Positions 22,205 through 32,254 of a DNA stretch of 33,814 nucleotides are shown piece after piece. Under the pieces are notes generated by a model. The model was given only the letters and a program-made list of their open reading frames with translations. It ran no database searches and was not told the origin of the DNA. The DNA comes from Gammaproteobacteria bacterium (GTDB lineage: Bacteria; Pseudomonadota; Gammaproteobacteria; SZUA-152). Position 1 is the stretch's first letter. Each line of letters starts with the position of its first letter. Made by a program: the position numbers and the translations under genes. The stretch covers positions 1 through 33,814 of the forward strand of contig DRKQ01000263.1 of assembly GCA_011051685.1 (NCBI GenBank), read 5' to 3'.

Positions 22205-22410
22205 CACTGCTGTCCCACTAACTTACATTTTGTTTTGATGCAGCTGGTGACACAATTGGGAATCAGGGAGGTTAGCGGAATTGGAGACATAAACATCGTT
22301 GCTCTCTTTTTCCGTCATTCCGGCGTAGGCCGGAATCCAGCGGCTTTAATGACTTACTGGATCCCGACCTACGCCGGGATGACAAATCTGAAGTTAGTGG
22401 GACAGTAGTG
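22205..22410. mobile_element. MITE-like element 1 (206 bp)
   Basis: Terminal inverted repeats of 20 bp: left CACTGCTGTCCCACTAACTT (22205-22224), right its complement with one mismatch (22391-22410). Inside are two inverted 27-base arms (22314-22340 and 22357-22383) of the GTCATTCCGGC...GGAATCCAG type. The flanks GTTTAACAG and GTTTAGTGA agree at five of nine bases, which may be a decayed target duplication. There is no coding capacity. A relative lies at 29934-30199. Confidence 0.8.
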
Positions 22411-28066: not shown

Positions 28067-28079
28067 GCGAAGGCCGGCT

Positions 28080-28109
28080 ACTTTACCCGAAAGCGGGGGG
28101 CATTGACAA
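28080..28109 (-). promoter_or_regulatory. tRNA-Val promoter
   Basis: TTGTCA (5/6) at 28104-28109, an 18-base spacer and TAAAGT (4/6) at 28080-28085, read on the minus strand. A GC-rich discriminator (AGCCGGCC) follows, typical of stringently controlled stable RNA promoters. The tRNA 5' end lies about 14 bases past the -10. Confidence 0.6.
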
Positions 28110-28210
28110 GCGACACCGGCGAATCACGAAGCCGCGCATACCCTACGCCTCGATCACGGTCCTGCGCAGCGCCCGCAATCTTCCTCTAGTCAACAAGCCC
28201 TGGCGGCGAC

Positions 28211-29791
28211 TCACCATACCTCTTCTGTCTCCGCCGTTGCGGTCACACGTTGCAGGGAACCGGCGACGTCCGCATTCAGGTAAAAAATATCGGACTGTGT
28301 GGTCGGTGTCGTCATGGAATTGAGGGTGATTTCAACCCCGCAAAGTGCATTTGCACCAATCGAAAAACAATCGATCGCGGATATTGGATCCGTGTCAGGC
28401 AGCGTCCCCAGTATGGCCACATCGGCCGAGGTGGATGCATCCACGGATTTGATCGTGGCCCCCGCGAACCCTGCACCAGACGTGTCGGCCTCGGCGAGAA
28501 TCAATGTCTTTACGAGGTCGGGATAGAACAATCCGTTCATGGGCCATTGGTTCGCAGTATTCAAGCCGGCCCAGGCGGCATCCGTGATCTCGACGGGATT
28601 CGCCCCGCTGCTTTCGATCACACCCGCCAGTGACGATGTGCCCTGGATGTTGTAATACATGAGCTTGTCGCCGACGTAGTAGATTTCCAATTCATCGGTG
28701 CCGCTGGCCGTTGCCAGGGTCATGGGCGTGCCACCGGTTTTGGCCACCGACTTCAGGCTGGTTCCTCCGGCATTGTCGCTGACGGAATAAACCAGGGTGG
28801 AGTTGGCGATGTACAGTTCATCAATCCAATCCGTCTCTGTCGCCACGGTTGTCGCCGCGGCGCTTCCGTCGATGGGAACCTGGAGGATCCACGAGCCCGA
28901 CATCGAACTGGACGCAATATAAAAATTGACGCCATCCTGGTACGCATCGAAAACGCTGCTGCCGGAGGCATCGAACAAGGGCTGAGACAGGGTGTTCGTT
29001 GCAACGGTGTACACATACACCTGGCTGTCGATCTCCAACAAAAACGCCGTACCGAAACCGGACTGAAAATCGAGGGATGACACGAAACTGCTCACCGGCG
29101 CAAGCGTCGTGCAATTGGCAAAACCGGCATCACAGCGTTGCAGTTCGCTCGCAGCCTTGTCGTGCACCAGCCAGCCGGCAAGGACGCCACTGCTGGAATC
29201 CATGATTTCCCCGACCACGGGCTTGGCGCTGATCGGAGCCTCGGAGGCGCTCATACCGAGACGTACCATTTTCCAGACATCGTCATCGGTATCACAGGTT
29301 GCGTCCATGCCAGGCAAGGCGTACACGTATTGCGAGTCGTCCGCCGTGGCAAAATCCATGCTCACTATGCTGCTACTGGTACACAACTGATTCGCCATGG
29401 TTTCACTTGACACGCGCACCGGCGAAAGCGTCCCACTCTTGAGCGCGCTGACCTTGTAAAGATAACCATCGGCATTGGGGTAAATGATGGCATGCAGATG
29501 TATATCCCGAAGCATGCCCGAATCGGGTGTCGCCGCATACACGCGATTGATCACGGCCAGCGTATCGAAATCACCTGGTAGAAGGCTCATTGCCGGCTCC
29601 ACCTCGGTGGGCGAGGTGGGCGAGTCCGGATCCACCGCCTTCAGACCCAGCGAGTCCAGCATGTAAAAGAGGTCGGTGGGGGTTGTCGTTCCACCACCGC
29701 CATTACCGCCATTGTCATTACCACCCCCGCCACAAGCGGTTAGCACAAGACCGACGACACCAACCCATAAAAATCGAATAACCTGCTCCAT
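28211..29791 (-). CDS. Predicted lipoprotein of unknown function
   Basis: This is a 526-residue protein I do not recognise. A lipoprotein signal is clear: basic-hydrophobic start MEQVIRFLWVGVVGLVLTAC with lipobox LTAC and Cys20, followed by a flexible Gly/Asn linker (GGGGNDNGGNGGGG). The rest is rich in Ser, Thr, Ala and Asp and in beta-prone segments of the form DGVNFYIASS, SQVYVYTV, DELYIANSTLVYSV and DKLMYYN. These recur at about 40-50 residue spacing and suggest a beta-propeller. A few Cys pairs (for example LQRCDAGFANC) could form disulfides. It is probably anchored in the outer membrane facing the periplasm or surface. AAAGGAG lies nine bases before the ATG. Three tandem 12-bp repeats lie immediately upstream. 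Confidence 0.85.
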   Translation of the reverse strand: MEQVIRFLWVGVVGLVLTACGGGGNDNGGNGGGGTTTPTDLFYMLDSLGLKAVDPDSPTSPTEVEPAMSLLPGDFDTLAVINRVYAATPDSGMLRDIHLHAIIYPNADGYLYKVSALKSGTLSPVRVSSETMANQLCTSSSIVSMDFATADDSQYVYALPGMDATCDTDDDVWKMVRLGMSASEAPISAKPVVGEIMDSSSGVLAGWLVHDKAASELQRCDAGFANCTTLAPVSSFVSSLDFQSGFGTAFLLEIDSQVYVYTVATNTLSQPLFDASGSSVFDAYQDGVNFYIASSSMSGSWILQVPIDGSAAATTVATETDWIDELYIANSTLVYSVSDNAGGTSLKSVAKTGGTPMTLATASGTDELEIYYVGDKLMYYNIQGTSSLAGVIESSGANPVEITDAAWAGLNTANQWPMNGLFYPDLVKTLILAEADTSGAGFAGATIKSVDASTSADVAILGTLPDTDPISAIDCFSIGANALCGVEITLNSMTTPTTQSDIFYLNADVAGSLQRVTATAETEEVW

Positions 29792-29807
29792 GTTTTAAGA
29801 CTCCTTT

Positions 29808-29843
29808 CAGACGATCTGCCAGACGATCTGCCAGACGATCTGC
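29808..29843. repeat. Three tandem 12-bp repeats before the lipoprotein gene
   Basis: CAGACGATCTGC occurs three times head to tail without mismatch (29808-29819, 29820-29831, 29832-29843). Each unit is a hyphenated palindrome (CAGA-CGA-TCTG). The block ends just upstream of the gene's Shine-Dalgarno, so it lies in the leader or overlaps the promoter. Confidence 0.85.
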
Positions 29844-29901
29844 AAAATGACGACGCCCTGCCCCAACCCGAATGGGAAGGCACAGGCTATTGAACTTTTT
29901 T

Positions 29902-29931
29902 ATTATAACAAACGATTATTTTATAGTTCAA
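29902..29931 (-). promoter_or_regulatory. Candidate promoter of the lipoprotein gene
   Basis: TTGAAC (4/6) at 29926-29931, an 18-base spacer and a perfect TATAAT at 29902-29907, read on the minus strand. The -35 lies inside the 9-bp target duplication of the MITE-like element, whose end is two bases further upstream. The leader would be about 105 bases and would include the three tandem repeats. Confidence 0.45.
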
Positions 29932-29933
29932 AT

Positions 29934-30199
29934 CACTGCTGTCCCGTTAACTTGCCTTTTGATTTGGCGAAGCTGTTGAAAAAAAACGGGAAAACAGCGA
30001 GCCTTGCGGCACTGGAGACATGAATAGCGCTGGTCTTTTTCCGTCATTCCGCGAAGGCCGGAACATAAGCGCGTAGCGCGTTGAACGCCCAACGGGCGGC
30101 CCGTAGGGTGCGCGCAGCGAATAATCCAGTGATTTCTGCAGGTTACTGGATCCCGGCATTCGCCGGGATGACGAATCTGAAGTTAACGGGACAGCAGTG
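29934..30199. mobile_element. MITE-like element 2 (266 bp) with 9-bp target duplication
   Basis: Perfect 20-bp terminal inverted repeats CACTGCTGTCCCGTTAACTT (29934-29953 and complement at 30180-30199). They are flanked exactly by the direct repeat AGTTCAAAT (29925-29933 and 30200-30208). Internal GTCATTCC...GGCCGGAA (from 30043) and CTGGATCCCGG...GGGATGAC (30146-30172) match the arms of element 1, with an extra GC-rich insert between them. It encodes nothing. A 9-bp duplication suggests mobilisation by a transposase of an IS4-like or similar family acting in trans. Confidence 0.88.
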
Positions 30200-30223
30200 A
30201 GTTCAAATAGAAAATGAGCGGCG

Positions 30224-32254
30224 TCAGTGAAGATGGGCCAAACCCATGGCATTCTCCTGAATGTGATTGATCTCATCCCGTAGCCGCGCTGCTTCTTCGA
30301 ATTCCAGATCCTGGGCATGCTGATACATCTGCTTTTCCAGTGAGGTAATGCGCTTGGCCAGTTGTGCCGGTGTCATTGAGGCATATTCGGCGATCTCGTC
30401 GGCCACCCTGGCGAAGTCGCCGGGCTTGAGCCGGTCGTAGCCCTTGCCCGTGCTGCGCCCCCCTTCCATGATGTCGGCGATCTGCTTGCGAATGGTGGTG
30501 GGGGTAATGCCATGCTCCTCGTTGTAGGCCTGCTGTTTGGCGCGGCGTGCCTCGGTGATGTCCATGGCCTTTTGCATGGAGTTGGTGATCTTGTCGCCGT
30601 AGAGAATGGCCATGCCCTCGGCGTTGCGCGCGGCGCGGCCGATGGTCTGGATCAGCGAGCGCTCGGAACGCAGGAAGCCTTCCTTGTCGGCGTCCAGAAT
30701 CGCCACCAGTGACACCTCGGGCATGTCCAGGCCCTCGCGCAGCAGGTTGATGCCCACCAGCACGTCGAACTCACCGAGACGCAGGTCACGGATGATTTCC
30801 ATGCGCTCCACAGTTTCGATGTCCGAGTGCATGTAGCGCACCCGTACGTCGTGGTCGCCCAGATAATCGGTGAGGTCTTCGGCCATGCGCTTGGTCAGCG
30901 TGGTCACCAGCACCCGTTCGTTCACCGCGGTGCGTTTGTGGATCTCCGACAGCAGGTCGTCCACCTGGGTGCTGGCCGGGCGCACCTCGATCAGCGGATC
31001 CAGCAGACCCGTGGGCCGCACCACCTGCTCGATCACCGCGCCGGAGTGCTCTTCTTCGTAGGCCGCCGGGGTGGCGGAGACGAAGATGGTCTGCGGCATC
31101 ATGCGCTCGAATTCGTCGAAGCGCAGCGGCCGGTTGTCCAGCGCCGAGGGCAGGCGAAAGCCGTACTGCACCAGGTTTTCCTTGCGCGAACGGTCGCCCT
31201 TGTACATGCCGCCGATCTGCGGCACGGTGACGTGGGATTCATCCAGAATCATCAGCGCATCCCGCGGCAGGTAATCGATGAGCGTGGGCGGCGGCTCCCC
31301 TGGCTGGCGCCCCGACAGGTAACGCGAGTAGTTTTCCACGCCTGAGCAATAGCCCAGCTCCAGCATCATCTCGATGTCGTACTTGACCCGCTGCTCCAGG
31401 CGCTGGGCCTCCACCAGCTTGTTCTCCTGGTAGAAATACTCGAGCCGTTCGGGCAGTTCCTGCCTGATCTGCTCCACGGCCTCGAGAATCGTCGCGCGCG
31501 GCGTGGCGTAGTGGGTCTTGGGATGGATGGTGACCCGTGGCACCCGCTGCAGCACTTCGCCGGTGAGCGGGTCGAAATAGGCGATGTTGTCGATCTCGTC
31601 GTCGAACAGTTCCACGCGCACCGCGTCGCGGTCGGAGTCGGCGGGAAAGATGTCGATGACATCGCCGCGCACCCGGTAGGTGCCGCGATGCAGTTCCACG
31701 TCGTTGCGCTTGTATTGCAGCTCGGCGAGGCGGCGCAGGATTTTACGCTGGTCGATGGTTTCGCCGCGCGACAGGTGCAGCAGCATCTTCATGTAGGACT
31801 CGGGGTCGCCCAAACCATAAATAGCGGACACGGTGGCGACGATGATCACGTCCTTGCGCTCGAGGATGGCCTTGGTGGCGGACAGGCGCATCTGCTCGAT
31901 GTGCTCGTTTACCGAGGCATCCTTTTCGATGAAGGTGTCGGAGGACGGCACGTAGGCCTCGGGCTGGTAATAGTCGTAATAGGAAACGAAATACTCCACC
32001 GCATTGTGCGGGAAGAATTCCTTCATCTCGCCGTAGAGTTGCGCCGCCAGGGTCTTGTTGGGGGCCATGATGATCGCCGGGCGCTGCACGGCCTGGATCA
32101 CGTTGGCGATAGTGAAGGTCTTGCCCGAGCCAGTGACGCCCAGCAGGGTCTGCCCCGCCTCGCCGGCCTCGATGCCTTCCACCAGCGCCTTGATCGCGCC
32201 GGGCTGATCGCCGGCGGGTTTAAATTCTGACTCTAATTGAAATCTTTTGCTCAT
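30224..32254 (-). CDS. uvrB: Excinuclease ABC subunit B
   Basis: This is the damage-verification subunit of nucleotide excision repair. It receives DNA from UvrA and recruits UvrC. The 676 residues include Walker A GVTGSGKT (39-46), the beta-hairpin that grips DNA ([14 protein letters not shown], near 93-106), the DEAD-like DESH box ([11 protein letters not shown]) and helicase motif VI (QTIGRAARN). The C-terminal UVR coiled coil (near 635-670) binds UvrC. The length is normal. The ATG at 32254 has a weak purine-rich leader. It is divergent from the aminotransferase gene with 79 bases between them, as I recall from Pseudomonas. I see no clear LexA box. A MITE-like element lies 24 bases beyond the stop. 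Confidence 0.99.

What the first reader, a model, noticed from the sequence alone, without database searches (positions are those of the whole stretch)
29925..30208. MITE with perfect 20-bp ends and a 9-bp target duplication
The terminal repeats are perfect and the direct repeat AGTTCAAAT lies exactly outside them, which is strong evidence of transposition. The element has no genes and shares ends and inner arms with the copy at 22205-22410. It looks like a family of non-autonomous elements built around the widespread GTCATTCC...GGGATGAC palindrome.
Basis: seen in the sequence. Interest (0 to 1): 0.6.

Follow-up and report, generated by a model that had tools for sequence, protein, structure and literature searches.

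The report
IS4-type MITE carrying REP hairpins
This is a genuine 266-bp gene-less jumping DNA element, one of several dozen copies in its genome, that is almost certainly moved by an IS4-family transposase, carries copies of a common bacterial hairpin repeat, and contains a short internal signal that its parent transposons also preserve inside their transposase gene.

Summary
The element is at 29934-30199, with perfect 20-bp inverted ends and the 9-bp duplication AGTTCAAAT on both sides. The genome holds 71 exact CACTGCTGTCCC ends; 20 paired copies have perfect 9-bp duplications (27 with at most one mismatch). One same-genus relative has the neighbouring genes without the element; seven others lack both the element and the upstream gene.

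Autonomous partners exist: 1271-1274-bp IS4-family elements (DUF4372 + DDE transposase, YREK motif) with the same ends and 9-bp duplications, fitting the IS4Sa subgroup. The window's own genome keeps the left end of such an IS and a decayed copy.

First, the inner palindromes are head-to-head CGTC-type REPs carried as passengers; same-ended MITEs elsewhere carry other palindromes. Second, a box GACATGAA lies about 80 bp inside one end of otherwise unrelated MITEs across Gammaproteobacteria, and about 150 bp inside the left end of the parent IS, within the transposase gene, where its codons are frozen (AGA 16/18 against 9% background). I infer a second cis-acting transposition site; this is untested.

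The parts
29925..29933 (.). left target site duplication AGTTCAAAT
   Evidence: same length in at least 20 other or paired copies
29934..29953 (+). left terminal inverted repeat CACTGCTGTCCCGTTAACTT
   Evidence: 71 exact copies of its first 12 bases in the genome
30017..30024 (+). internal box GACATGAA, 83 bp inside the left end
   Evidence: same box inside the transposase gene of the parent IS
30042..30063 (+). first CGTC-type REP (one loop-side base missing), interrupted before its tail by a GC-rich piece of about 60 bp
   Evidence: read; REP form as
30146..30173 (-). second CGTC-type REP, head-to-head with the first
   Evidence: pattern match at 30146-30172 with no mismatch
30180..30199 (-). 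right terminal inverted repeat, perfect reverse complement of the left one
30200..30208 (.). right target site duplication AGTTCAAAT
22205..22410 (+). second, shorter and older-looking copy (206 bp) with imperfect ends, box GACATAAA at 22286-22293, a REP dimer, and no matching TSD

Best explanation
The element is a MITE mobilised in trans by an IS4-family (IS4Sa-like, DUF4372-type) transposase. Shown by sequence: the shared ends, the shared 9-bp duplication length, several dozen copies in this genome, its absence from relatives, and IS elements with the same ends and an apparently intact transposase in other Gammaproteobacteria. Inferred: the transposase of a resident IS, seen here only as a left end at a contig edge plus a decayed copy, binds the CACTGCTGTCCCGTTAAC ends, cuts the element out and inserts it at a staggered 9-bp cut. 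Also inferred: a second signal, GACATGAA about 80 bp inside one end, takes part in transposition, because it is frozen in otherwise unrelated MITEs and, at the DNA level, inside the transposase gene of the parent IS. The REP hairpins are passengers copied along with the element.
For: 71 exact ends, 0 in control; 20 copies with perfect 9-bp TSD; absent in relatives; own genome has the left end plus transposase start of an IS with the same end and a decayed transposase ending in the same terminus; complete ISs with the same ends and perfect 9-bp TSDs: L093, L170 and L171, L313; IS4-family models far above cut-off; IS4Sa ends, size and TSD length in PMC2266710; co-occurrence of box-bearing MITEs and DUF4372 genes, p = 8e-4. 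Box.
Against: No base-exact empty site was found. No intact IS is assembled in the window's own genome. Only 6 of 16 genomes with box-bearing MITEs show a DUF4372 gene, although most are drafts in which IS copies collapse. About a third of the non-redundant MITEs lack the box within one mismatch, so it may be dispensable. Nothing here shows binding or movement experimentally.
Confidence: 0.92

Rival explanations
1. The REP palindromes are the mobile unit (moved by a RAYT tyrosine transposase or another enzyme), and the CACTGCTG ends are merely part of a longer REP-associated repeat.
For: REP dimers outside these elements are common (47 of 108 examined), and the genome has five Y1_Tnp genes.
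Against: The 9-bp duplications lie exactly outside the CACTGCTG ends, not outside the REPs. Same-ended elements without these REPs transpose with the same TSD length. MITE REPs and free REPs differ in loop sequence.
Confidence: 0.04
2. The GACATGAA box has no transposition role: in the IS it only reflects protein constraint on the PRHEF residues, and in the MITEs it is an inherited relic of the transposase gene.
For: The box overlaps conserved residues of the DUF4372 domain; a third of MITE lineages lack it within one mismatch.
Against: Codons are frozen beyond the protein constraint (AGA 16/18 against 9%, CCG 13/14 against 24%, GAA 16/16 against 55%). MITE arms around the box have diverged beyond recognition while the box and its distance stayed. 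The distance differs between IS (about 150) and MITE (about 80), so simple inheritance would need a deletion.
Confidence: 0.3
3. The structure is a conserved regulatory or terminator hairpin at the uvrB 3' end rather than a mobile element.
For: It folds strongly as a single strand (z = -6.3) and lies 15 bp behind the uvrB stop codon.
Against: Intact perfect TSD, dozens of copies at unrelated sites, and absence in relatives.
Confidence: 0.02

Closest known systems
IS4 family, IS4Sa subgroup (De Palmenaer 2008, PMC2266710), DUF4372-type transposase
   Same: Ends CA------T, size 1150-1750 bp, 8-10-bp duplications, YREK motif; NCBIfam IS4 model NF033592 at 258-269 bits against a cut-off of 115.
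   Different: Placed by these criteria only; no tree with ISfinder members was made. The internal GACATGAA box is not mentioned in the passages I read.
CGTC-tagged REPs (Di Nocera 2013, PMC3733652)
   Same: CGTC tag, short stem and loop, CCA tail, head-to-head dimers.
   Different: That paper found no transposase association; here one REP lineage rides inside IS4-type MITEs.
QMITE2 of Coxiella burnetii (Wachter 2018, PMC5896051)
   Same: 150-190-bp MITE with 7-11-bp duplications that carries a REP.
   Different: GTAG-type REP, not CGTC; I did not compare its terminal repeats with these.
MITEAba12 of Acinetobacter (PMC6382973)
   Same: From the search listing only: a mobile MITE paper that mentions 9-bp and target site duplication.
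   Different: Paper not opened and sequence not compared; its parent family and ends were not checked.

Membership tests
MITE | short (under about 400 bp), no coding gene, terminal inverted repeats | tested here: met
   266 bp, perfect 20-bp TIR, no convincing gene
MITE | target site duplication and multiple copies at unrelated sites | tested here: met
   9-bp TSD; 71 ends, 20 copies with perfect TSD
MITE | autonomous relative with the same ends and duplication length | tested here: met
   L093, L170, L171, L313 in other genomes; left end only at a contig edge in the own genome
MITE | empty site in a close relative | tested here: inconclusive
   element absent in relatives, but the gap aligns poorly and is not base-exact
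IS4 family (the partner IS) | DDE transposase with YREK motif (Y-2-R-3-E-6-K) | tested here: met
   DDE_Tnp_1 and IS4 models; YKARWQVELFFKWIK read from the L093 protein
IS4Sa subgroup (the partner IS) | ends CA------T, 1150-1750 bp, 8-10-bp duplications | tested here: met
   CACTGCTGT ends, 1271-1274 bp, 9 bp
IS4Sa subgroup (the partner IS) | clusters with IS4Sa transposases in a tree | not tested
CGTC-tagged REP (passenger) | CGTC tag, 8-9-bp stem starting AT, 4-5-bp loop, CCA tail, head-to-head dimers | tested here: met
   seen in the copies; 133 pattern places in the genome, many paired. The first REP of the finding's own element is degenerate.

The most novel reading that the evidence does not exclude
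GACATGAA is a previously undescribed second cis-acting site of this IS4 group. It takes part in transposition, is kept at about 80 bp by most MITE lineages, and overlaps the reading frame of the parent transposase, so that the gene and the transposition signal constrain each other. The same MITEs spread one lineage of CGTC REPs, for which no transposase was known.
Probability: 0.5. Interest if true: 0.65.

Novelty: new variant of a known kind. Interest (0 to 1): 0.5.

Why it matters
It links a common orphan repeat (CGTC REPs, reported in 2013 as lacking a transposase) to a concrete transposition system, at least for one REP lineage. It also points to an unrecognised internal signal shared by IS4-type elements and their MITEs. 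The box gives a cheap, testable prediction in laboratory E. coli and a better search profile for such MITEs across Gammaproteobacteria.

Tried and rejected
the first pairing script assumed that minus-strand loci were reversed; its coordinates were wrong and were replaced; a long MITE pattern in named genomes found nothing, so the short 18-bp end was used; no matches in viral contigs. PF14294 gave no hit in the window's genome, which fits an IS that lies at contig ends (C186); the box test was partly circular, since some loci had been fetched with the box, and one control permutation reached 19 (I took it to be a shifted copy of the motif); redone without those loci and without shifted permutations. 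One search contained six false transposase starts, removed. Literature searches for the end sequence found no relevant paper. Rejected: a small peptide starting at the ATG of the box, because the frames after it are not conserved (stop at the fifth codon in L141; read). Rejected: REPs as the only mobile unit. Not pursued: structure prediction, since sequence families already identify the transposase.

Full report
OBSERVATION. The element is exactly as described. TSD AGTTCAAAT lies at 29925-29933 and 30200-30208; the 20-bp TIR CACTGCTGTCCCGTTAACTT lies at 29934-29953 with a perfect reverse complement at 30180-30199. It lies 15 bp behind the uvrB stop codon (uvrB 30224-32254 on the minus strand) and upstream of a 526-aa gene without a Pfam match (28211-29791). 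The copy at 22205-22410 has near-identical ends, but its flanking 9-mers do not match.

A REAL FAMILY. The genome (3.36 Mb, 308 contigs) holds 71 exact CACTGCTGTCCC ends against 0 for the reversed pattern. Paired copies come mainly in three size classes, about 160, 204-206 and 259-266 bp. Twenty have a perfect 9-bp TSD and seven have one mismatch, and two decayed copies also keep a perfect TSD. Five other copies match the finding's element over its whole length at 93-96%. Over all validated copies, the TSD prefers A at its first and T at its last position (61% each, counted on both strands together).

ABSENCE IN RELATIVES. Nine same-genus relatives have a uvrB match. In seven of them tRNA-Val sits close to the uvrB end, with neither the 526-aa gene nor the element between (L104-L109, L111); L112 is similar with a somewhat longer gap. 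In L110 an apparent counterpart of the 526-aa gene is followed by uvrB without the element; the short gap aligns poorly, so this shows absence, not a base-exact empty site.

THE PARTNER. Contig C186 ends inside an element that starts with the same terminus and continues into what reads as MAHHNTVFSQLLKF, the start of a DUF4372-type IS4 transposase (sequence; translated by eye in the frame that matches the family). Its flanking 9-mer ATCTCAAAA recurs where contig C103 begins with the opposite terminus, as expected for an IS collapsed out of the assembly; the same 9-mer also flanks another copy (C31), so this is supporting rather than decisive. C127 holds a decayed transposase that ends in GGGGCAGCAGTG. 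Complete ISs occur elsewhere: L093 (1271 bp, TSD ATTCATTAA), L170 of Zhongshania antarctica DSM 25701 (1273 bp, TSD ACCAATCAG) and L171 (1274 bp, TSD ATACTGTCC); L313 has TSD AGTCTGGCC. The transposases tested hit Pfam DDE_Tnp_1 + DUF4372 and NCBIfam IS4 far above cut-off, and the L093 protein carries the YREK motif (read). Ends, TSD and size match the IS4Sa row of Table 1 in PMC2266710. In 369 Gammaproteobacterial genomes, box-bearing MITEs and DUF4372 genes co-occur in 6 genomes where 1.3 are expected (p = 8e-4).

THE PASSENGER. The inner palindromes (GTCATTCCGGCGAAGGCCGGAATCCAG, preceded by C) fit the CGTC-tagged REP super-family, usually in head-to-head dimers, for which no associated transposase was found (PMC3733652). 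The genome has 133 places that match the REP pattern within two mismatches. Of 108 distinct REPs examined, 61 lie near an IS4-type end and 47 do not; the two sets differ in loop sequence (first loop base C in 5/61 against 28/47, p = 9e-9). Free dimers had no convincing TIR with TSD. So the MITEs spread one REP lineage but do not explain all REPs; the genome also has five Y1_Tnp genes. MITEs with the same ends in other genomes carry other palindromes: CCCTCTCCC/GGGAGAGGG repeats, GTCATGCCGGGCTTGACCCGGCATCC, and CATCCTTCGACTTCACTTCGC. The hairpin is therefore cargo, not the defining core.

THE BOX. Between the end and the cargo, one stretch is constant. GACATGAA lies about 80 bp inside one end of MITEs whose arms are otherwise unrelated (24 non-redundant arms, chosen for carrying GACATGA). 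In a set of 26 non-redundant, TSD-validated MITEs that were not fetched with the box, it is exact in 12 and within one mismatch in 18; 600 permuted motifs average 0.01 and 0.46 (maxima 1 and 9). A gapped search finds end plus box at this distance in 16 of 369 genomes, 11 genera, with 0 in the reversed control. The parent ISs have the same box in the same orientation about 150 bp from their left end, inside the transposase gene at the PRHEF codons. There its codons are frozen: in 19 transposases, Arg is AGA in 16/18 (9% elsewhere in the same genes; the strongest of 36 columns tested, p = 2e-15), Pro is CCG in 13/14, Glu is GAA in 16/16 and His is CAT in 18/18, while the next Glu codon is split between GAA and GAG. 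These sequences are related, so the p values are indicative only. The distance from the ends is bimodal (75-85 and about 150) and the box is rare in the flanking DNA outside the ends. The 70-bp difference is close to the length of a predicted hairpin that covers the transposase start region in the IS leader; this is a lead only.

MECHANISM. Shown by sequence: mobility, family, partner type, duplication length, box conservation. Inferred: trans-mobilisation by the resident IS, and a role of the box in transposition (transposase or host-factor site). Not shown: any binding or movement in the laboratory.

Noticed in passing
window 28067-29933: The 526-aa gene (28211-29791, no Pfam match, start region reads like a lipoprotein signal) lies between tRNA-Val and uvrB; seven relatives lack it there, so it looks like a tRNA-adjacent insertion or a lineage-specific loss.
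   Followed up: partly
window 29808-29850: Three tandem copies of a 12-bp unit CAGACGATCTGC just upstream of the 526-aa gene.
   Followed up: no
window 30064-30124: A GC-rich piece of about 60 bp (CATAAGCGCGTAGCGCG...) interrupts the first REP; similar pieces sit in REPs of L263 and L247, so it may be a repeat of its own.
   Followed up: no
L070:1986-2131, L154, L160, L171 left ends: The IS leader is predicted to fold into a strong hairpin that covers the transposase start region, perhaps a guard against read-through expression.
   Followed up: partly
G000 contigs C40, C70, C252, C144: Four copies sit in nearly the same target word (TTGTCGGGT / ACCCGACAA and variants), which hints at a preferred repeated target.
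   Followed up: no
L095:397-1872: What looks like an IS with a DUF4372 gene nested inside a MITE with these ends in a same-family genome.
   Followed up: no
G000 contigs C250, C166, C72, C142, C259: Five Y1_Tnp matches, candidates for moving the REP dimers that lie outside the MITEs; their flanks were not examined.
   Followed up: no
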